The notes beneath the pieces were generated by a model. The model saw only the letters and a list, made by a program, of their open reading frames with translations, was not told the origin of the DNA and searched no databases. From positions 1-46,908 of IMG/VR virus record IMGVR_UViG_3300031339_000012: DNA of 46,908 bases; one strand, 5' to 3'. The DNA is from a virus. This document shows, piece by piece, positions 1,108 to 40,533 of the stretch (its first letter is position 1; every line of letters begins with the position of its first letter). The position numbers and the translations under genes are program-made.

Positions 1108-1606
1108 GTGAATACTTGTTCCAATCTGTAAATTTCTCACGGTCTAAAAGATCATGCAGACTGTGACACCACACGCCGGGATTAGTTGCGTTGAAGTCAC
1201 GATCGTCAATTTTGATCATAGTGTTGTAATTCCACTGCTTAACGTAGGGTAGCGGAATACGGATTTGTGGGATAAAGTTATTGTATTCTACTAGTTCGCT
1301 TTCGAGAAAGTCTTCAGCGAGTGTAACATCAATGTCTAAGCTACACAGGAAGTCCTGTTTAAGAAAAGTTTTGATCATCTCATCCCATTCGAACCAGTCA
1401 TCATCACTGTCTATTTTAAAACTGTGATTGGCTCCAAAGAAGATGTGAGTACACTCTTCTTCGTCTGCGATTGCTCGTATCTCGTTTACGTCCTGAAGAC
1501 CAGTAACAAACAGGGTGCGCATTCCGAGCGCAGGGGTCTTTTCGACCTCTGTGCCCACAAAGAACGTTACTCCTGATGCTGTTTCTCCTTCATAGTCACG
1601 CTTCAT
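1088..1606 (-). CDS. Conserved marine T4-like phage protein, unknown function
   Basis: 172 aa starting MKRDYEGETASGVTFFVGTE. I recognise the opening (variants of MKRDxxGExASGVTFFVGTEVExTPAxGMxTLFV) as widely conserved in marine T4-like phages, but no function is known to me. The protein is acidic with no membrane segments. The middle (HIFFGANHSF, then SDDDWFEWDEMI) suggests a globular alpha/beta protein. Its 5' end overlaps the 3' end of the upstream 65-aa gene by 11 nt. The 3' end carries the early promoter of the next gene. Confidence 0.75.
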   Translation of the reverse strand: MKRDYEGETASGVTFFVGTEVEKTPALGMRTLFVTGLQDVNEIRAIADEEECTHIFFGANHSFKIDSDDDWFEWDEMIKTFLKQDFLCSLDIDVTLAEDFLESELVEYNNFIPQIRIPLPYVKQWNYNTMIKIDDRDFNATNPGVWCHSLHDLLDREKFTDWNKYSLDKIVK

Positions 1607-1793
1607 GTTGTGCCTTTAGTGTTTTGTTAAGTCGGTGGATTTTGTCTTTGTACCATAGTTTGATGGTTTTTAAACGATTAATTTCGTAGTTCGAAGCATA
1701 CTCAGTATAGCGCCGTTTAACTAGCGTGTCAACCTTGTTGTGTTGAAATTTAAGTTCTTCTAGTCGATTTGACTCTTTGCTAGGATTGTTCAT
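1596..1793 (-). CDS. Small coiled-coil protein, DUF465-like
   Basis: 65 aa and highly charged. The order of features, L-x3-H-x3-D then NYEINRLKTIKLWYKDKIHRL, resembles the short helical hairpin of the DUF465/YdcH family, in which basic helices alternate with leucines. The function of that family is not established. It overlaps the end of the DpdA-like gene by 14 nt and the next gene by 11 nt, so it is part of a tightly packed operon. Confidence 0.65.
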   Translation of the reverse strand: MNNPSKESNRLEELKFQHNKVDTLVKRRYTEYASNYEINRLKTIKLWYKDKIHRLNKTLKAQHEA

Positions 1794-3309
1794 CTTCTAG
1801 AATCTCCAAGTTATGTTCTGCATCTTCTGCAAACTCGTCATCTTTTTGTGACGAAGAGTCGAACAAGCTATCAAAATAAGTGCTAGCGTTTACTGTCTTT
1901 TTGCCGACTGCGCCGCGTGTTCCCGGAATAGACATCCAAAAACGACTATGCTGGTCTATTATCTCTAGCGCATCTTCTCGAGTCGTCTGTGCAAAGATTT
2001 CATCTACTACATCACGAAAGAACTTTTGATCAAACTGTTCTTCTACTAGCATCTTAGGCACAATACCGTTGTCGTACTGTCTGTTTGCTTCTTGGACAGC
2101 GTTGATATGACTCCATACGTTGTGCCCCATCTGAATAGCATAGCTAAACGAATCCCAGCTGGTCTTTCCTTCTTTGCCGATCTTATTTAGATCACCTGGT
2201 GCATAGATACAAACGTCTGATACTTTCAATTCTTCTGTAAGAGGGCTGTCTGTAAAGTTCTTAAAGATACCGTCAGTTAACACTGCATCACGGAACAATC
2301 GTTGGTCCGTAGAATACTTCTTATTGTCTATGCTGGGCTGCATTCTATAGACCCACTTCTTGCGATCTGGTGTTTCTGTTTGAATGTAAATCTGTCCATT
2401 TGCTGTAGCAAGGAACGGCGATGCACAATCAAACGTGACCATAAAGTTTGGGTTATGATACTTGCGAACAGCACGTTGTATGTCGGTTAGCAGCGTTGCC
2501 CACTCTAGCTTGCTTGTACCAAGAAAGTGCATTACGTCATGTATGCCTTGTTCTAATAAGCCGTCGAATCGCAGCGTAACAAGCCGTTTAAGCACGAGAT
2601 GTACATCACACATGTTTTGCCCACCCATACTCCATCCATTGAAATGGTTGTCTGGATACACAGTTGGATCACAGTAGTCTTTCATCTGCTCGTACCAATC
2701 TTCTGCGTCTGCGTGATTCTCACCTTGCAATACGTTAAGAAACTTGCAAGCACCTGTTCTGTGCTTGAGCCAGTAGTCATTGTTGATGCGAGTAGCTGCT
2801 ACTGCTTCACCATAGGTACTAATACCTGTTGCCTTCGCTCCTTCTGGGCTACGTGCTACCCACGCAGGGATATCAAGGATCATACCGTAGTCCATGTATG
2901 CGTCCATCCAGCGCAATACACCGTCTCGCTTCTTCTGCGCCTTAGGACATTTAGGATCTTTCCAGTCACCTTCCCATACACCTTTACCAATTTGGAAACC
3001 GCCGCTGTCACCTAGCATCCAAGAATTTTCACGATCGCGATTGCGGATCATATCCTCTTTAGGCGAATGTTTGTTAATGTCAAGCTCTGCGTGTCCTGCG
3101 GAATACAGACTCCATTTATACTGAAACTGCCCTTCTGCGGGATTTAGATAGTTAAGGCTTTCAATGCCGTGATTAAAGTTGCTAGGAATGCGTGACGTTA
3201 AAACATATTCACCATATCGTTGCTTGCCTACATAAGTGGCGTAAAAGCCACTAAGTGCTGGTAGGAAAAAGGCATAATCTTTTTGTTCTGCGGTTAAGTT
3301 ACGATTCAT
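1780..3309 (-). CDS. dpdA-like: TGT/DpdA-like guanine base-exchange enzyme
   Basis: 509 aa. Visible motifs fit the tRNA-guanine transglycosylase superfamily in the right order: GDSGGFQ at about 100-106 (D101, the substrate-binding Asp position), NVLQGE at 192-197 (TGT VQG loop), SMGGQ at 227-231 (TGT GGLAVGE loop), HFLG at 261-264, and TFDCASP at 292-298, whose D294 corresponds to the TGT nucleophile Asp in FDCV-P. The C-terminal CxCxxC-H zinc site of bacterial TGT is not visible. Phage relatives of this kind (DpdA) insert 7-deazaguanines into DNA to evade restriction; tRNA modification is the alternative. No preQ0 synthesis genes are in the window, so the base would have to come from the host or from genes elsewhere. 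It overlaps the upstream gene by ATGA. Confidence 0.75.
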   Translation of the reverse strand: MNRNLTAEQKDYAFFLPALSGFYATYVGKQRYGEYVLTSRIPSNFNHGIESLNYLNPAEGQFQYKWSLYSAGHAELDINKHSPKEDMIRNRDRENSWMLGDSGGFQIGKGVWEGDWKDPKCPKAQKKRDGVLRWMDAYMDYGMILDIPAWVARSPEGAKATGISTYGEAVAATRINNDYWLKHRTGACKFLNVLQGENHADAEDWYEQMKDYCDPTVYPDNHFNGWSMGGQNMCDVHLVLKRLVTLRFDGLLEQGIHDVMHFLGTSKLEWATLLTDIQRAVRKYHNPNFMVTFDCASPFLATANGQIYIQTETPDRKKWVYRMQPSIDNKKYSTDQRLFRDAVLTDGIFKNFTDSPLTEELKVSDVCIYAPGDLNKIGKEGKTSWDSFSYAIQMGHNVWSHINAVQEANRQYDNGIVPKMLVEEQFDQKFFRDVVDEIFAQTTREDALEIIDQHSRFWMSIPGTRGAVGKKTVNASTYFDSLFDSSSQKDDEFAEDAEHNLEILEDEQS

Positions 3310-3701
3310 GGCTTTCCTTCTTTGCTGTTAATTATATCGCTAAACGTGTTGTACAATGAGCTATTCTTAGGAACAGCGTAGTTTGTGGTGCTGTATTTGT
3401 AGGGGTTGCCTCCGCCACCACCGTACCAATCTAGCCCGCTCCCGCCTATGTGTTGATTAGACCGTATTGCGTTCTTCATAGTCAACTCCATATCCGCCAT
3501 ACGTTTTTCGAGAACACTCACTCTGTCAAACACGCTAACTAATCCGTCAGTGCATCGCACTCCTAGCTCTTCTGCTTCGGCAATACTAGCTATTAACATA
3601 AAGTTACGCAGTGCCTTTTTAACACTTGGGTTATTTGACGCTATTGCAGCGTCAAATAACTTTGCGAATTGATATAGATCTACTTCGTCGTCTTCGCTCA
3701 T
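3306..3701 (-). CDS. Conserved phage protein with coiled coil and Gly-rich tail
   Basis: 131 aa. The acidic N-terminus (MSEDDEVDLYQFAKLFDAAI) leads into a helical section with NPSVKKALRNFMLIA, then a predicted coiled coil (about 58-80). A flexible Gly-rich stretch GGSGLDWYGGGGG at about 86-98 follows. It is related by eye to conserved proteins next to gp45 in marine T4-like phages. No function is known. It sits between the sliding clamp and the DpdA-like gene, overlapping the latter by 4 nt. Confidence 0.7.
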   Translation of the reverse strand: MSEDDEVDLYQFAKLFDAAIASNNPSVKKALRNFMLIASIAEAEELGVRCTDGLVSVFDRVSVLEKRMADMELTMKNAIRSNQHIGGSGLDWYGGGGGNPYKYSTTNYAVPKNSSLYNTFSDIINSKEGKP

Positions 3702-3713
3702 ATTAACCTCAAA

Positions 3714-4442
3714 TTACTTAGACTGTGCTGGTAAGATGTAATCGTACTTGGCCATACCACTGTCTACTGTAATCATCATAGCACCTTGGTCCGAAATGCT
3801 CATAGTAAGCTCCCCGTCTAGGTTCAGGATGCTTTGAATCTGCGCCACCGGCCAGCTCCATGTGTGTTTAAGTGTACCTTCTACACCGTGCTGAAAAACA
3901 AACTCGCCGGCGTGTGTGCTTGCGTCACCGAAGCTAAACACCAGATTGCCGCCTTTAGTTTTTACATTAAAGATAATTTCTTCAGAATGTGCCGCGCTCA
4001 TTAACTTCATACGTGCAATAGAAGCCATAGTAGGTTCTACTTGAATATTCCAAGCTGCACCTTTAAACTTAACAGTCTTAAGCCTTTCTTCAACTACGTT
4101 TTGCGAGATAAAGCGATAGTCGTTTTCAAAGTCGCCTGCTGCATTTTCAAAGTGAACGTATGTAGGAACATCAGTACCGTCCTTCTGCTTGGACACTACT
4201 TCAATCTTAGCGTTGTCTTTGTATTCGGGATTCTTCAAGTGAAGGTTCAGCTTGTCCAAGTTAGTCATGCCAAACGTGCCGTGGAATTGTGGCACAGGAG
4301 TGTGAGTAGTTGCACTCATTATCACACTGCGGTCTTCTGCCATTGAATCAATCTGAGTACCTTCGTCATTGGTTATTTTAATAATTGTTAGGAAGCCCAG
4401 TGCGTGGGTATGTGCTACTACGTCTTGCAAAATATCTTTCAT
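3714..4442 (-). CDS. 45: Sliding clamp, DNA polymerase accessory protein gp45
   Basis: 242 aa, against 228 in T4 gp45. It is recognised by its overall pattern: the MKDILQDVVAHTHALGFL start, a conserved centre around FHGTFGMTNLDKLN and a YDYILPAQ end. Gp45 forms a trimeric ring on DNA that tethers the polymerase and, in T4, also activates late transcription together with gp33/gp55. The polymerase C-terminal half in this window ends in NSLFDF, a good partner peptide for the clamp. The gene follows its own early promoter (4476-4504). The clamp loader subunit gp44 is about 23 kb away, unlike the T4 45-44-62 order. Confidence 0.9.
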   Translation of the reverse strand: MKDILQDVVAHTHALGFLTIIKITNDEGTQIDSMAEDRSVIMSATTHTPVPQFHGTFGMTNLDKLNLHLKNPEYKDNAKIEVVSKQKDGTDVPTYVHFENAAGDFENDYRFISQNVVEERLKTVKFKGAAWNIQVEPTMASIARMKLMSAAHSEEIIFNVKTKGGNLVFSFGDASTHAGEFVFQHGVEGTLKHTWSWPVAQIQSILNLDGELTMSISDQGAMMITVDSGMAKYDYILPAQSK

Positions 4443-4533: not shown

Positions 4534-5607
4534 TCAGAAGTCAAAGAGACTATTGAATGTAGTTGTTTGCTTAGTGCTTTCTAAGTCGTAGTCTAGTACT
4601 CCTATAAGGTTGCCTAGTTTATTGTCAATAATAGTTTCTGCCATTGCGTCATCGTCAAACGGCAGCTCTTTAAACCAGTCTGGCAAACGAAGTTCGTCAG
4701 TAGGATAAGCAACTGATGTATATCCTAGTGGGTTTGGTTTAAGCTTGCAAACAATGCACTTCATTCCGTCTACTGCTTCTTGTGAATATCGATCACTGTG
4801 CATACGCTTGAGAGTATTCCAATTTATTGCTGCTCTAACGTGGCCTGGCATATTAGCCTTGCCTTGCTTTTCTTCAAGGTGTTGATAATGGCCTAGCTTA
4901 TTCACACGCTTAGGGGTACCTTTCTCCCAGCCAGGTCTGTCAATAAATTCCTTGCGGAACGTGGAGATTCGATCGAGTACTATTTCTCGATCAACGTTGG
5001 TCAACACCATAAGTAGTATTTCTTTCAAAAAGTCTTGCATATACACAGGTGTATCGCTGCGACGAAGGTCTAATCCCATTGCTTTGACTTTGCCTTCTGC
5101 TCCGTCTACATCTTTGCGCTTTCCTTCGTCATCATACACTAGTGCAGCGTAGCGTTTCTTAGTAATAAACAACCCCGAACTAGCAACAATTTCCCGGCCT
5201 GCCTTGATAACTTCTGCTCTTGACTTAGCACAATGAAACGCTTTTGCTGCAAAGTCTATAAACGTTGTGTCTACTTGTGCACTAATTTGATCATACAACG
5301 AAACAATACTGTCTTTGTCCCAAGGTATAGTTCCTTCCTTAATGTCTTTTTTAAGCGTAGGATACGCACTAAAGTAGACCGAATTGTGTATTAAGATATT
5401 GTTAGCAAAAAACCAAGGGTGGTTTTTATTTTTCATTCCTATGTCATATACATAATCATTTGCTTTTTTTATTTTAGTTACCCTAGCAACTTTTCCTCGA
5501 GTAACAGAAACCTTTTTGCTTCCTAATAATTTCAGGAATGCATCTGTGTATTCTTTTACTTGCTCTATTGAAGATGCGTTTAAAATATTAGTAAATTCTT
5601 TTTTCAT
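4534..5607 (-). CDS. 43: DNA polymerase gp43, C-terminal half, fused to the C-part of a split intein
   Basis: 357 aa. Residues 1-75 are intein C-part: a 30-odd residue extension, then block F (VYDIGMKNKNHPWFFANN) and block G ending ILIHN, with penultimate His and terminal Asn for cyclisation. Residue 76 is Ser, the +1 nucleophile, which begins the extein SVYFSAYPTL. The 282-residue extein contains the remaining palm and the thumb of a family B polymerase: KKRYAALVYDDEGKRKDVDG, then KAMGLDLRRSDTP as in T4 gp43. The end NSLFDF matches the T4 gp43 clamp-binding tail. The ATG overlaps the stop of the endonuclease gene (ATGA). Active polymerase requires trans-splicing with the product of 6614-8809. 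Confidence 0.92.
   Translation of the reverse strand: MKKEFTNILNASSIEQVKEYTDAFLKLLGSKKVSVTRGKVARVTKIKKANDYVYDIGMKNKNHPWFFANNILIHNSVYFSAYPTLKKDIKEGTIPWDKDSIVSLYDQISAQVDTTFIDFAAKAFHCAKSRAEVIKAGREIVASSGLFITKKRYAALVYDDEGKRKDVDGAEGKVKAMGLDLRRSDTPVYMQDFLKEILLMVLTNVDREIVLDRISTFRKEFIDRPGWEKGTPKRVNKLGHYQHLEEKQGKANMPGHVRAAINWNTLKRMHSDRYSQEAVDGMKCIVCKLKPNPLGYTSVAYPTDELRLPDWFKELPFDDDAMAETIIDNKLGNLIGVLDYDLESTKQTTTFNSLFDF
5383..5607 (-). other. Split intein C-part (IntC) coding segment
   Basis: 75 codons from the ATG to the Asn before the extein Ser. Blocks F and G are intact (H-P-W-F-F-A-N-N and I-L-I-H-N). Typical phage IntC fragments such as those of gp41 or NrdJ have about 35-45 residues; here about 32 extra residues precede the recognisable part, possibly for association with IntN. 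Confidence 0.88.
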
Positions 5608-6557
5608 TCATTCCACCATTTTAGGATTTGATTTTCGACTGCCTGTCTATTGTTAAAGTAATCGCTTTCCCATATAACCAATACACTAAATCCTCTTTTC
5701 TTAGCTTCATTAAGTTTAATAGCATCTCTCTGCCAAACCTCCAGTGCACTAACACCAGACTGCTTTATAATAAAGTCTGAAGAATATTTGTTAGGATTAC
5801 AATGCCAGTAGTCTCCATTATACTCTATAATCTTTTTCTTTTCATAATCTGTAACATCATAAAATAACGGAGCACTTAATTCATGAGACCAAATACAGTA
5901 CTGTTTAGTTTCATTAGTATACACTAGTTTTCCTAGTATGCGTTCTAAATTTTCTACAAACTGTTTTTCAGACTTTGAGGTATATCTATTTTTATATCGG
6001 TCTGCTAATTTAAGTTCAGCTTGTTCTTTAGAGAGGTTATACTTTTCTTGTACAAATTCGATGTTAGAAGATTTTCCTCGATCTTTACAATATTGGTTCC
6101 ATTTTAACTCACCCAGCTCACCGTATTGTTGAATAAAGTAGGATAAACTATTAGTATACCGCTGTCTCTCAATGTATTCTTCCCAGTAGATTATGCCTTT
6201 CTCTTCCCCATGACGTGTTATCATATTCTGCAACGTGCAAGATCTGCTTTCATTGTACTCATCAAACTGTTCTCGAGTCATGCCATGCTTCTTTAGCTTG
6301 TACTCAAAGGTATTACTAGCGGCCTGTTTAGCAACATAGCTGTTCCATCGAGAGCTGCCGTCTTCAACTCCATATTTTTTTATCAAGTTATTTTTAGTAA
6401 TTGCAGTATTCTTTGCTAACTCATTGTCAACCAGAAGTGCGCTAGGATACACCTTTTTGTATTCTCTTCCGTTAGAGAATCTGCCAGTACACTTGTACTT
6501 AAAGTGGGTCCATTGTAACCTACTAGCTTCAAACCCACATTCTAAACACTTAGGCAT
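5604..6557 (-). CDS. Vsr-like (EDxHD-type) homing endonuclease
   Basis: 317 aa from the ATG at 6557, chosen because GGAG lies eight bases upstream; a longer reading to 6590 would start inside the hairpin. The N-terminus has a zinc-finger-like CLECGF...H...C pattern (C4, C7, H18, C23). Residues 60-165 carry about three repeats of the form (Y/H)G-E-x-G-x3-W-x2-Y, probably DNA-binding. The C-terminal domain (about 195-317) has the very-short-patch-repair endonuclease fold signature: D234, IIEYNGDYWHCNP (243-255), W275 with D278, and VLVIWESD (292-299), parallel to Vsr VDGCFWH and RIWE. Such enzymes cut intein-free alleles so that the insertion is copied. It lies between the two polymerase genes and overlaps the second by 4 nt. 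Confidence 0.88.
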   Translation of the reverse strand: MPKCLECGFEASRLQWTHFKYKCTGRFSNGREYKKVYPSALLVDNELAKNTAITKNNLIKKYGVEDGSSRWNSYVAKQAASNTFEYKLKKHGMTREQFDEYNESRSCTLQNMITRHGEEKGIIYWEEYIERQRYTNSLSYFIQQYGELGELKWNQYCKDRGKSSNIEFVQEKYNLSKEQAELKLADRYKNRYTSKSEKQFVENLERILGKLVYTNETKQYCIWSHELSAPLFYDVTDYEKKKIIEYNGDYWHCNPNKYSSDFIIKQSGVSALEVWQRDAIKLNEAKKRGFSVLVIWESDYFNNRQAVENQILKWWNE

Positions 6558-6570
6558 AACAATTCTCCAA

Positions 6571-6600
6571 TAGTTGTACGGCAATAGCACCGTACAACTA
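6571..6600 (-). promoter_or_regulatory. Hairpin in the endonuclease leader
   Basis: A perfect 11-bp inverted repeat (TAGTTGTACGG at 6571-6581 and its complement at 6590-6600) with an 8-nt loop. Its base lies 2 nt before the GGAG ribosome binding site of the endonuclease gene. Read-through transcripts from the upstream polymerase gene would fold it next to the start region. Confidence 0.75.
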
Positions 6601-6606
6601 TTTATC
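6599..6606 (-). promoter_or_regulatory. T4-type late promoter of the endonuclease gene
   Basis: GATAAATA on the minus strand, one base from the T4 late consensus TATAAATA. Initiation six or seven bases downstream would fall inside the left arm of the hairpin at 6590-6600, so late transcripts would not form it. Confidence 0.6.
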
Positions 6607-6613
6607 CTATCTT

Positions 6614-8809
6614 CTATTTTATACTTAGTGTTAGAATAACATCATTAATGTCAATATCAACTGGGTGAACTTCTATTAACTTTCCTTCTCGTTCTACCAT
6701 TATGGAATGATCTTCTGTAACAGTAACAGTGTTGCCATTACTATCTTCGATCTCGTACATGTCTTTCTCTACTTTGTGTCTATAAACGTAATTCATATGG
6801 CCCATATACGGCTCGTCTTTGGCTATGTCGTATGACATCACCATAATGTTTTCGTCTATTGCATACTCCTTGTCTTTATCATTAGTTTTATCTTCGCACA
6901 GATCAAACAGCTCTTCGATTGTTAATACACCTTGCGACGTTTCTATTAACGAAGTTCCCACGCAGGAGTCAGTGTCGCCGTAGATCACAGCTTCGCCTGT
7001 GTGGTCATAAACACCTGTGATAGTCTTGTTTACCTCTGCGCTCATATGCTTAACAATCTGCCTACCAGTTAGTGTAGTTGATTGCCCAATACGTTTGTCG
7101 AAGAATCTACAGCCTGGATTAAGAATTGCTCCGTACAGTGAGTTGAGGTTGATCTTCTTAACCAATTGTCTCTTATCCCAAAACGTTATTTCGGTCTCGT
7201 TCCCTGCTGCAATAGCTTTCTTTAGCATTCCTTGTAGTTCTTTTCGTTCTGCGTACCAACGTTTTAGTATACCGGGTATAACGCCTTCAAACTCGGTTGT
7301 AAAGATCGTGCCGTTAGCACTAATCATCCAAGGCATTCGACTTTCAAATATCAGTTTGTATACTTCTGCACCGCTGAGCACGTCATGTCTGCCGTCTTCC
7401 CAATCAATAGTCAACGCAACGTCTTTTCGTTTTTCCATCACAGCAACATATTCAAGGCTTCCAAAATGACCTTCCCATGCACCTGCAAATGTTTTCTTCT
7501 GAAGCGTCATTGCTTCGTGTACCATTCTGTCTGTCATATCTGGACGAAGTTGACCCACCACAGTTTCGGGCCCCATGTTCAGTGCTCGAATCACACTAGG
7601 ATATAGTGAATTTAAGTCCATTGATCCTATGGCTAAGTGTAGTCCTTTTTTTGGAAAGGCAACGTATGCACCTGCTGCCTGCGTGTTTTCAGTACCTTGG
7701 TTTTTTCTATTAGGAACCTGTAGTCCTCTGTGATGCGCTTCATTTATGATTGCTTGCTCAGTAACAGCAACAGCTCCCATAACTGTTTTCAACATTACTG
7801 TGTTGGCGTGTGCAAGTTCGTTGGACAAGTCAATAAATTGCAGCTTCTTGTCTAGCTTGTCTAACAGAGCAGTATCCTGTCTGTTGTATTCAACAAACGT
7901 CTCAAAGTCGTTATTATACAACTGATCTAGTGTTCCTTCATACACAGTCTTATTTTCGCCTATCTCTAGCTCGCCGATTGCATCAAGTCTATAAGTGTGT
8001 CGTTCTTCATAAGTGTACTTCCTATAAAGATTTAGACTGTCAAGATGCACACGTCCTACAAAGTCATAGGTTTCGGACGTCTTTCCGAACTTCTCGTATT
8101 CTCGCTTCTTAGGAAGCTCTCCCCATAGGCAAAACTTTCGTGTATCGTCTTTGCTTAGGACGCGCTGTATACGGTTTACAGTGTAGGGCACGTCATACCC
8201 CTCTGAGTTCCAACCGCTGTGTACGTCAGCATCTTCCAACAGGTCTAAGAACGTAAGCAGCATATCTTGCTCACCTTTGCCTTTAGAATCGTTAGGAAAC
8301 AGTATTACTTCGTCGCCCCATCTCTTTTGGCACATTGCTTTGGCTTCCTCTAGTGGGAGACCTTTGGGCGGTACTGCTAGTGTGATCAACATGCTGTCTA
8401 GCCATTGTAGGCATACTGTGATAGCTGTAATGGGCATAAACGGGTCGTCAGTCGGAGCAAATCCTCTCACTGGATCGAAGTCTGTCTCAATGTCCCAAAA
8501 CAATACGTTCAGCTTGGGGGAATCTTGATTGAGGTAGTTCTCACTTAGACATTGAAATATTGGATTAATGTCGCTTTCAAACAGCGTCTTATCTCTGTTG
8601 ATAGCAACTTCCTTTCGAAAGTCCTTGGTATTCTTTGCGACAATTCTACTCAGAGCATCGCCAAAGATGCTCTGATGCTTTCCTTTTGGATCTTTGTAAT
8701 AAAAAGTGTACTTAACAGGATACTCAGTAAACGTTCGTTTTCCGTCGCGTCTTTCAACTATCCGAATAACATCGTCTTTTCTGTCAAACATTGCGTCGAC
8801 ATAGCTCAT
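6614..8809 (-). CDS. 43: DNA polymerase gp43, N-terminal half, fused to the N-part of a split intein
   Basis: 731 aa. Extein residues 1-614 hold a family B polymerase with proofreading exonuclease: Exo I FWDIET (104-109), Exo II SGWNSEGYD (198-206), Exo III YNRQD (308-312). Polymerase motif A is DLNSLYPS (398-405) and motif B is K-INLNSLYGA (about 552-561). The extein stops at YGDTD (610-614), the middle of motif C. Residue 615 onward is intein N-part. Neither half can polymerise alone because motif C is divided. Extein halves of 614 and 282 residues sum to 896, against 898 for T4 gp43. The ATG overlaps the stop of the small Cys-rich gene upstream (ATGA). Confidence 0.93.
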   Translation of the reverse strand: MSYVDAMFDRKDDVIRIVERRDGKRTFTEYPVKYTFYYKDPKGKHQSIFGDALSRIVAKNTKDFRKEVAINRDKTLFESDINPIFQCLSENYLNQDSPKLNVLFWDIETDFDPVRGFAPTDDPFMPITAITVCLQWLDSMLITLAVPPKGLPLEEAKAMCQKRWGDEVILFPNDSKGKGEQDMLLTFLDLLEDADVHSGWNSEGYDVPYTVNRIQRVLSKDDTRKFCLWGELPKKREYEKFGKTSETYDFVGRVHLDSLNLYRKYTYEERHTYRLDAIGELEIGENKTVYEGTLDQLYNNDFETFVEYNRQDTALLDKLDKKLQFIDLSNELAHANTVMLKTVMGAVAVTEQAIINEAHHRGLQVPNRKNQGTENTQAAGAYVAFPKKGLHLAIGSMDLNSLYPSVIRALNMGPETVVGQLRPDMTDRMVHEAMTLQKKTFAGAWEGHFGSLEYVAVMEKRKDVALTIDWEDGRHDVLSGAEVYKLIFESRMPWMISANGTIFTTEFEGVIPGILKRWYAERKELQGMLKKAIAAGNETEITFWDKRQLVKKINLNSLYGAILNPGCRFFDKRIGQSTTLTGRQIVKHMSAEVNKTITGVYDHTGEAVIYGDTDSCVGTSLIETSQGVLTIEELFDLCEDKTNDKDKEYAIDENIMVMSYDIAKDEPYMGHMNYVYRHKVEKDMYEIEDSNGNTVTVTEDHSIMVEREGKLIEVHPVDIDINDVILTLSIK
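6617..6967 (-). other. Split intein N-part (IntN) coding segment
   Basis: 117 codons. Aligning block A (CVGTSLIETSQGVLTIEEL) with phage split inteins and demanding an exact YGDTD/SVYF junction places the first intein residue at Ser, one residue before the Cys, so the intein is Ser1-type. Block B is present as TVTEDHS (T-x-x-H). No endonuclease domain is included; that function is in the separate gene next door. Confidence 0.87.
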
Positions 8810-12009: not shown

Positions 12010-12017
12010 TATTTATC
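12010..12017 (-). promoter_or_regulatory. T4-type late promoter
   Basis: GATAAATA on the minus strand. It leaves a leader of about 18 nt that contains TAGGAG before the ATG of the 245-aa virion protein at 11986, the ideal T4 late layout. Confidence 0.75.
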
Positions 12018-16637: not shown

Positions 16638-17333
16638 TTAATATTTATCAATATCTTTTTTATATACTAAGTAATCTATCCTCCTAATGTTATGACCAAC
16701 TAGCATACTAATGAGATTGAGCACTCTCTCGTCTCTTACATAAAAGTACAAGCCAGAAGTAAAATATCCTTTTCTAATGTTGTTAATAGTTGATTTACCA
16801 ACTCTGCTCTTGTCTTGATTGGCGTCTAACCAGTTGATAAAGTCCGGATCAATTTTATTGTTACCAAAAGTAACTTTTATTGGAAACTCAGGAACGGAGT
16901 TAGTAAGTATTACATTCTTTTCTGTCTGCAAAAACTTAGAAAGAGCAGCGTCCGGCGCCCAGAATTCTCTATTGCTGACCTTCATTTTATCTGATATTTT
17001 TTCTAGCAATGCTTTATCGTTAGCGTATATTATCAAAGTTCGGCCGGGGTTAAGTCTTATTTTGTAATCTTCTGCAAACTTTAGCACAGAATAGATATGC
17101 TTGGCGTCGAGATAATGTTCAATTGGAACAGTGCGGGTTGTCCTCCAAACTATTTCGGACATTGGTTCGTTGTTTCGATAATTTTCTGTAAGTTGGTCAA
17201 GTTTTTCTCTAGCATACCCCAACGCGCTACTCTTTTGAAGGCTAGACCGGAATATTGTGTTTAGCTGATTAGAAAGTACCAGCTTGTACTGGTACTTACC
17301 GTAATGCAGCTTTGTTGTTTCAAACTGCTTCAT
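16638..17333 (-). CDS. Conserved hypothetical protein (231 aa)
   Basis: It starts MKQFETTKLHYGKYQYKLVL. Conserved-looking blocks are LGYAREKLDQL, VWRTTRTVPIEHYLDAKHIY, REFWAPDAALSKFL and YLVYKKDIDKY. I recognise the opening (K-T-T-K-x-H-Y-G-x-Y-x-Y-K) as a recurring marine-phage protein with no known function. Basic, without signal or membrane segments. It overlaps the ClpA-like gene by 14 nt and therefore belongs to the same transcript. Confidence 0.7.
   Translation of the reverse strand: MKQFETTKLHYGKYQYKLVLSNQLNTIFRSSLQKSSALGYAREKLDQLTENYRNNEPMSEIVWRTTRTVPIEHYLDAKHIYSVLKFAEDYKIRLNPGRTLIIYANDKALLEKISDKMKVSNREFWAPDAALSKFLQTEKNVILTNSVPEFPIKVTFGNNKIDPDFINWLDANQDKSRVGKSTINNIRKGYFTSGLYFYVRDERVLNLISMLVGHNIRRIDYLVYKKDIDKY
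16642..16649 (-). promoter_or_regulatory. Possible T4-type late promoter
   Basis: GATAAATA on the minus strand, six bases before the ATG at 16636. A leaderless transcript would result for that gene, so it may serve mainly the genes further downstream. Confidence 0.45.
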
Positions 17334-20733: not shown

Positions 20734-20765
20734 AGTTACTCCTTGCTAATATTTATGGAGTAACT
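20734..20765 (-). promoter_or_regulatory. RBS-masking hairpin with embedded late promoter-like box
   Basis: A 9-bp perfect inverted repeat, AGTTACTCC (20734-20742) and GGAGTAACT (20757-20765), with a 14-nt loop. In the minus-strand RNA the second arm contains GGAG, the ribosome binding site of the EF-hand gene. CATAAATA at 20757-20750 (one base off the late consensus) would start transcription inside the loop, leaving the site open. Confidence 0.65.
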
Positions 20766-23894: not shown

Positions 23895-23902
23895 TATTTA
23901 TC
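23895..23902 (-). promoter_or_regulatory. T4-type late promoter
   Basis: GATAAATA on the minus strand, twelve bases upstream of the structural gene start at 23883. It lies in the divergent gap shared with phoH. Confidence 0.6.
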
Positions 23903-38907: not shown

Positions 38908-38915
38908 TATTTATC
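38908..38915 (-). promoter_or_regulatory. T4-type late promoter
   Basis: GATAAATA on the minus strand, with a leader of about 17 nt containing GAGGAA before the ATG of the 1156-aa virion gene at 38885. Confidence 0.75.
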
Positions 38916-40525: not shown

Positions 40526-40533
40526 TATTTATC
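40526..40533 (-). promoter_or_regulatory. T4-type late promoter
   Basis: GATAAATA on the minus strand, 23-30 nt before the 301-aa fibre gene start at 40503, with CAGGACGCAGG in the leader. Confidence 0.75.

What the first reader, a model, noticed from the sequence alone, without database searches (positions are those of the whole stretch)
4534..8809. DNA polymerase gp43 fractured by a split intein with a Vsr-like endonuclease gene in between
Gene 43 is two genes. The N-half ends in IntN, the C-half starts with IntC, and the break falls inside YGDTDS, the catalytic motif C. The exteins add up to 896 residues, against 898 for T4 gp43, so trans-splicing should recreate the normal enzyme. The separating gene is a Vsr/EDxHD-type nuclease. 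This matches the fractured-gene layout known from marine metagenomes (split inteins plus this nuclease family), but an essential replicative polymerase split at its active site makes replication depend on protein splicing.
Basis: partly seen in the sequence, partly recalled or inferred. Interest (0 to 1): 0.85.

Follow-up and report, generated by a model that had tools for sequence, protein, structure and literature searches.

The report
Phage DNA polymerase fractured by split intein
A virus of bacteria carries its DNA-copying enzyme as two genes whose products should be stitched together by a self-splicing protein element, with a DNA-cutting gene between them that probably spreads the whole insert; the arrangement is real, but it is a new example of one already known from cultured phages.

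Summary
Confirmed. The family-B DNA polymerase (gp43 type) is two ORFs. The N-half (6614-8809, minus strand) is a 614-aa extein ending YGDTD plus a 117-aa IntN. The C-half (4534-5607) is a 75-aa IntC plus a 282-aa extein starting SVYF. An EDxHD/Vsr-type nuclease gene (5604-6557) lies between. A near-identical phage (L018, 96-97% DNA identity) has the gene uninterrupted, joined exactly at the predicted splice point, so the spliced product is a normal 896-aa polymerase.

This is a Ser1/Ser+1 intein. Its closest solved relative is the Aes123 PolB1 split intein of Aeromonas phage gp43, which has the same site and a Vsr-type nuclease between the halves, and trans-splices in vitro. Pseudomonas phages PA5oct and MIJ3 have a split intein at the same site. 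It is a new member of a known kind.

New is a natural series of states: occupied L133 is 99.6-99.8% identical to empty L027/L028; the nuclease cassette is 97-98% identical between phages whose polymerases are 66-80% identical; nuclease-deleted and continuous forms exist. The nuclease has its own late-type promoter. Two relatives carry inteins at both motif-C sites, two residues apart.

The parts
6968..8809 (-). N-extein: gp43-type family-B DNA polymerase residues 1-614 (exonuclease domain, motifs A and B, first part of motif C ...IYGDTD)
   Evidence: phrog_262 9e-138, PF00136 3.9e-29, PF03104 5.6e-15; 99% identical to intact L018
6617..6967 (-). IntN, 117 aa (Ser1; motif NX YRH; block B TEDH), stop codon 6614-6616
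   Evidence: TIGR01445 1.1e-8, PF14890 8.3e-7, alignment A2, profile hit to 9HTH 6.9e-27
6599..6606 (-). GATAAATA, T4-type late-promoter motif ahead of the nuclease gene
   Evidence: 7 of 8 NATAAATA in the window lie just upstream of minus-strand genes; NATAAATA at the same place in 20 of 27 fractured relatives
6569..6602 (-). inverted repeat (14-bp stem in the RNA fold) between IntN stop and nuclease start, upstream of a GGAG ribosome-binding site; partly overlaps the late-promoter motif
   Evidence: fold -21.1 kcal/mol; near-identical hairpin in L133, hairpin of unrelated sequence in L127
5604..6557 (-). EDxHD/Vsr-type putative homing endonuclease, 317 aa; C-terminal nuclease domain (about 194-310), N-terminal repeat-rich presumed DNA-binding region
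   Evidence: phrog_22677 1.9e-49; profile hits only Vsr chains, weakly; predicted model (pLDDT 91) best matches I-Bth0305I (prob 0.99) and Vsr (0.97)
5383..5607 (-). IntC, 75 aa, ending ILIHN; start codon overlaps the nuclease stop (ATGA)
   Evidence: alignment A2; aligned end to end with the continuous intein of L012, 92% identical
4537..5382 (-). C-extein: polymerase residues 615-896 of the spliced product, starts SVYF (Ser+1); stop codon 4534-4536
   Evidence: phrog_262 3.8e-43; 97% identical to intact L018

Best explanation
This is a fractured gp43-type gene. The two polymerase halves are made separately; IntN and IntC associate, fold into one HINT-type splicing domain, and by Ser1/Ser+1 (oxoester) chemistry with Asn cyclisation join D614 to S76 of the C-half, rebuilding motif C (YGDTDSVYF) in an 896-aa polymerase. 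The gene between them encodes a free-standing EDxHD (Vsr-related) homing endonuclease, driven by its own late-type promoter and translationally coupled to the C-half. It most likely cuts gp43 genes that lack the element, so that repair copies the whole IntN-nuclease-IntC block into them. Shown: architecture, all splicing residues, fold matches, exact empty site, purifying selection on the intein, recent spread between diverged phages. Inferred: trans-splicing, nuclease cleavage and target, promoter use, dependence of replication on splicing.
For: Domain and profile hits for both halves. Exact in-frame empty site in L018: 614 and 282 residues joined directly, 95.8% and 97.2% DNA identity on the two sides. 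Splicing residues Ser1, RH (NX), TEDH, HN, Ser+1 conserved across relatives. The intein of L012, a continuous version of the same intein, is predicted with pLDDT 86.5 and its best PDB match is the Aes123 PolB1 intein (E 5e-15, TM 0.88 on the target). Aes123 PolB1 trans-splices in vitro (PMC11923092, PMC13014065). IntN and IntC are under purifying selection (dN/dS 0.17). The nuclease model matches I-Bth0305I and Vsr. Mobility: L133 is 99.6-99.8% identical to empty L027/L028 up to the site, yet its spacer and nuclease start are 97-98% identical to the window's while the exteins are 66-80%.
Against: No activity was measured. The Pfam hit for the nuclease is weak for this member (0.016) and Foldseek E-values are modest (0.07-0.08), although 13 of 22 family members hit the restriction-endonuclease-like family MTES_1575. 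The rest of the genome is not in hand, so a second polymerase cannot be excluded in this phage; complete relatives such as PA5oct show a single place. The L133 contig ends inside the nuclease, so its IntC and C-side junction were not seen.
Confidence: 0.9

Rival explanations
1. The two halves work as a non-covalent two-subunit polymerase, as in Aeromonas T4-like phages where gp43A and gp43B are separate subunits, and the intein sequences are inert remnants.
For: Split gp43A/gp43B without an intein at that break exists in Aes123/Aes508 and an ORF break without an intein exists in Atu_ph07.
Against: The break lies inside motif C, not between domains; all splicing residues are intact and the intein is under purifying selection; a related phage encodes the same intein continuous inside an intact gene (L012), where it must splice.
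Confidence: 0.05
2. The nuclease is not a homing enzyme for this site but a passenger defence or anti-competitor nuclease that happens to sit in the intein gene.
For: Target and cleavage were not tested; homologues of the nuclease domain occur in contigs without a detected polymerase or intein match nearby (L139-L171).
Against: The same family sits between IntN and IntC at motif C in more than 35 IMG/VR loci, some of them near-copies, and in Klebsiella and Aeromonas phages; the recent independent occupation of two empty lineages by near-identical cassettes is what homing predicts; deletion scars of it remain in split inteins that lost it.
Confidence: 0.1
3. The gene is a pseudogene or an assembly artefact: a broken polymerase in a defective phage.
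For: The record is a metagenome fragment.
Against: All three frames are open, with purifying selection; N-side junction and nuclease start reproduced at 97-98% DNA identity in an independent contig; same layout in complete cultured phages.
Confidence: 0.01

Closest known systems
Aeromonas phage Aes123 / Aes508 gp43 (PolB1) split intein with VSR-like endonuclease
   Same: Same host gene, same DTD^S site, Ser1/Ser+1 intein, IntN 120 aa / nuclease / IntC with overlapping ORFs; nuclease homologous (30-32% identity)
   Different: Aes gp43 is additionally split into gp43A/gp43B, and Aes508 also has a Seg-like endonuclease and a group I intron; IntC 39 aa instead of 75; polymerase only ~27-30% identical
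Pseudomonas jumbo phages PA5oct / MIJ3 split PolB intein (PMC6892783)
   Same: Same site (YGDTD^S), IntN 117 aa, polymerase ~50% identical, IntN 52% identical
   Different: The gene in between is annotated as a Hef-like (PA5oct record) or HNH (MIJ3 paper) homing endonuclease and gave no match to the EDxHD nuclease
Klebsiella phages KP13-7 / phiKp_21 split polymerase
   Same: Fractured polymerase with the same EDxHD nuclease family (38% identity)
   Different: Intein at YGD^TDS, two residues upstream; annotated only as hypothetical proteins
Fractured genes of Dassa et al. 2009 (marine metagenomes)
   Same: Split intein in a DNA-metabolism gene, free-standing Vsr-like nuclease gene in between, control elements carried with the nuclease (paper known from memory and from citations; text not held)
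   Different: Another host phage; here with an empty-site and a continuous-intein relative
Nanoarchaeum equitans PolB split intein (NEQ068/NEQ528) and Mimivirus PolB intein (pol-c site, YGD^TDS)
   Same: Family-B polymerase interrupted inside motif C (PMC549080)
   Different: Site two residues away; archaeal or eukaryotic-virus polymerase; in N. equitans the two halves are separate genes without this nuclease arrangement (own knowledge)

Membership tests
Fractured gene (split intein plus free-standing endonuclease gene) | conserved enzyme broken in two ORFs whose facing ends are IntN and IntC | tested here: met
Fractured gene (split intein plus free-standing endonuclease gene) | endonuclease gene of its own between the halves, Vsr-like in about half of known cases | tested here: met
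   separate ORF 5604-6557; model matches I-Bth0305I and Vsr; profile hits only Vsr chains in PDB, E 0.05
Class 1 Ser1 split intein (Aes123 PolB1 type) | Ser1, block B TxxH, motif NX (R/K)H, C-terminal HN, Ser or Thr +1 | tested here: met
   sequence and alignment A2; motif definition from PMC10189870
Class 1 Ser1 split intein (Aes123 PolB1 type) | HINT splicing fold | tested here: met
   model of the continuous L012 version, best match 9HTH E 5e-15, TM 0.88 on the target
Cysteine-less inteins in the strict sense | wholly free of cysteine | tested here: not met
   Cys at intein position 2 and one more in IntN; the catalytic junctions are Ser, so it is cysteine-independent, not cysteine-less
Class 1 Ser1 split intein (Aes123 PolB1 type) | trans-splicing activity | not testable with these tools
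   needs co-expression
EDxHD homing endonuclease | EDxHD/Vsr-type catalytic domain | tested here: met
   invariant D234, E245, G248, Y250, W251, H252 and nearly invariant D249, D278 in 22 members; Foldseek 3R3P prob 0.99; E-values modest
EDxHD homing endonuclease | site-specific cleavage of the element-less allele, followed by copying | tested here: inconclusive
   cleavage not testable; population pattern is that expected of homing
gp43-type family-B DNA polymerase | exonuclease and polymerase domains with motifs A, B, C | tested here: met
   phrog_262, PF03104, PF00136; DLNSLYPS, KINLNSLYG, YGDTD^S in sequence

The most novel reading that the evidence does not exclude
Motif C of phage PolB is a two-site intein hotspot (YGD^TDS and YGDTD^S) colonised by one nuclease lineage. 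Within one group of related phages the same split intein passes through the whole homing cycle: empty, fractured with nuclease, split with a nuclease scar, and re-fused into a continuous intein (L012), a reversal from trans- to cis-splicing. In the extreme both sites are occupied, so that the motif's own Thr-Asp is a two-residue extein between two inteins (L127, L184).
Probability: 0.5. Interest if true: 0.62.

Novelty: new member of a known kind. Interest (0 to 1): 0.42.

Why it matters
The case itself repeats a known design, but its relatives make fractured-gene evolution directly testable. There are near-isogenic empty and occupied alleles (window/L018; L133/L027-L028), a nuclease cassette shared by diverged phages, nuclease-deleted scars, and a continuous twin of the same intein. 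They also give a supply of new Ser1 split inteins related to the ultra-fast Aes123/CLm tool.

Tried and rejected
Cys616 as the intein's first residue: rejected, because the empty allele shows the joint YGDTD^SVYF and the relatives start with Ser. GTG 6590 as the nuclease start: rejected, since homologues start MPKCLECG at the ATG and a promoter motif and hairpin precede it. Rising extein identity toward the site between window and L133 as a co-conversion tract: rejected, because two empty alleles (L018, L028) show the same values there, so it reflects conservation of motif C. A search for IntN relatives by back-translation gave only two loci. Tandem-intein pattern scans gave mostly chance hits, with L184 and L127 as the real ones. 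The continuous L012 form as the ancestral state: not excluded, but relatives L092, L020 and L023 are split at about the same place and L020 and L023 hold nuclease scars, so re-fusion is more parsimonious.

Full report
WHAT IS THERE. On the minus strand, 8809 to 4534, lie three ORFs. The first (731 aa) is the N-terminal part of a gp43-type family-B DNA polymerase followed by an intein N-part. The third (357 aa) is an intein C-part followed by the rest of the polymerase. Both halves hit phrog_262 over complementary profile ranges (11-584 and 581-850 of 856). The N-half also hits PF00136 and PF03104 and the intein model TIGR01445 above its cut-off. The extein lengths are 614 and 282, so the spliced enzyme is 896 aa. 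The predicted joint is YGDTD^SVYF.

THE JOINT IS FIXED BY AN EMPTY ALLELE. IMG/VR contig L018 encodes the same polymerase uninterrupted: residues 1-614 at 1468-3309 and 615-896 at 3310-4155. It is 95.8% (N side) and 97.2% (C side) identical in DNA to the window right up to the insertion. The insert is 1,585 bp (5383-6967). The intein nucleophile is therefore Ser1, not the following Cys, and the +1 residue is Ser.

THE INTEIN. IntN has Ser1, YRH (the motif NX of Ser1 inteins, PMC10189870) and TEDH; IntC ends HN. A profile of the group finds the Aes123 PolB1 intein 9HTH best (6.9e-27), and N. equitans NEQ068 among the weaker hits. A model of the continuous version found in L012 matches 9HTH at E 5e-15 and TM 0.88 on the target. 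Purifying selection acts on IntN and IntC (dN/dS 0.17, window against L012). It is not strictly cysteine-less, having Cys at position 2 and one more in IntN.

THE NUCLEASE. The 317-aa product has homologues at the same place in more than 35 IMG/VR loci, some of them near-copies. Its C-terminal domain carries invariant D234, E245-x-N-G-x-Y-W-H252. Sequence searches are weak: MTES_1575 at 0.016 for this member, with 13 of 22 members matching, and only Vsr chains in PDB, at 0.05. The predicted structure (pLDDT 91) has I-Bth0305I (3R3P, prob 0.99) and Vsr (0.97) as its best matches. EDxHD/Vsr-type is therefore well supported, though by fold rather than by strong sequence scores. The review PMC3943268 lists I-Bth0305I as the EDxHD type.

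CONTROL ELEMENTS. NATAAATA occurs eight times in the window, all on the minus strand, seven of them just upstream of a minus-strand gene; TATAAATA is absent. One, GATAAATA at 6599-6606, precedes the nuclease, followed by a 14-bp-stem hairpin and a GGAG site. The same motif sits at the IntN stop or in the spacer in 20 of 27 fractured relatives (some relatives are near-copies; the L136 match lies too far upstream to count). The nuclease gene thus most likely carries its own T4-type late promoter, and the C-half is coupled to it by an ATGA overlap. This is inference from sequence.

MOBILITY. The extein tree needs at least 8 changes between empty and occupied (quick search, long branches noted). 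Two pairs are telling. Window/L018: occupied and empty, 96-97% DNA identity. L133/L027-L028: occupied and empty, 99.6-99.8% identity over 4.6 kb. Yet window and L133 are only 66-80% identical in the polymerase, 88% in IntN, 97% in the spacer and 98% in the available part of the nuclease (IntC of L133 not covered). The last bases of IntN in L133 match the window rather than L012, with which it is otherwise identical. This is what recent spread of a nuclease-centred cassette between diverged phages would leave. Flank co-conversion is not visible.

LIFE-CYCLE STATES. Besides empty and fractured loci there are split inteins without a nuclease. In L020, L021 and L023 the short spacer still encodes the nuclease C-terminus (L020 QQILKW*; L021 TLVIWEEECLNNPTETIKRCVEW; L023 KWWNK*), that is, deletion scars (translated by eye). 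In L012-L015 IntN residue 116 is followed directly by the IntC start methionine in one frame: a continuous intein. Because L092, L020 and L023 are split at about the same point, re-fusion is the simpler reading; the opposite is not excluded.

COMPARISON WITH THE KNOWN. Aeromonas phages Aes123 and Aes508 have the same site and layout, with a VSR-like gene, and Aes123 PolB1 trans-splices in vitro; the engineered CLm form has a half-life of 16 s. PA5oct and MIJ3 have a split intein at the same site with another nuclease. KP13-7 has the same nuclease family at YGD^TDS. SCTP-2 has a continuous mini-intein. Archaeal, Mimivirus and N. equitans inteins sit at YGD^TDS. The finding is therefore a new member of a known kind, and the dependence of a replicative polymerase on splicing is not new. 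The Dassa et al. 2009 paper is not held and is cited from memory and from papers that quote it.

VERDICT. Observation confirmed, interpretation supported, novelty moderate. The added value lies in the natural series of alleles and in the two-site tandem inteins, neither of which I found described in the papers available here; that search was limited.

Noticed in passing
L127: 4573-6501 (IMGVR_UViG_3300009194_000009): Both motif-C sites are occupied: YGD^fractured intein^TD^continuous mini-intein^SSYF, leaving a two-residue Thr-Asp extein between two inteins.
   Followed up: partly
L184: ORF starting at 1773, junction 2703-2731 (IMGVR_UViG_3300021431_000095): A quite different phage PolB with two continuous inteins at the same two sites, again with TD alone between them.
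   Followed up: partly
L012: 3232-3804 (also L013-L015): Continuous version of the window's split intein, without the nuclease; IntN is identical to that of fractured L133 except in its last bases.
   Followed up: yes
L020: 5885-6012; L021: 5850-6010; L023: 5860-5900: Split inteins whose spacer holds a scar of the nuclease C-terminus, i.e. the nuclease was deleted.
   Followed up: partly
L016: 2549-5983: A second, Cys1 continuous intein with LAGLIDADG-like stretches inside the exonuclease motif GWN^SEGYD of the same polymerase, besides a nuclease-less split intein at motif C.
   Followed up: no
L103: 2352-2555; L107: 4179-4395; L020: 5100-5314; L127: 4163-4369: Group I introns (RF00028) in the motif-B region of the same polymerase genes.
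   Followed up: partly
window 12010-12017, 16642-16649, 20750-20757, 23895-23902, 38908-38915, 40526-40533 (-): NATAAATA motifs shortly upstream of genes: this phage probably uses T4-type late promoters with G or C at the first position; TATAAATA is absent.
   Followed up: partly
L009: 1501-4470 (Agrobacterium phage Atu_ph07): The polymerase is annotated as two ORFs that break without any intein match near residue 528.
   Followed up: no
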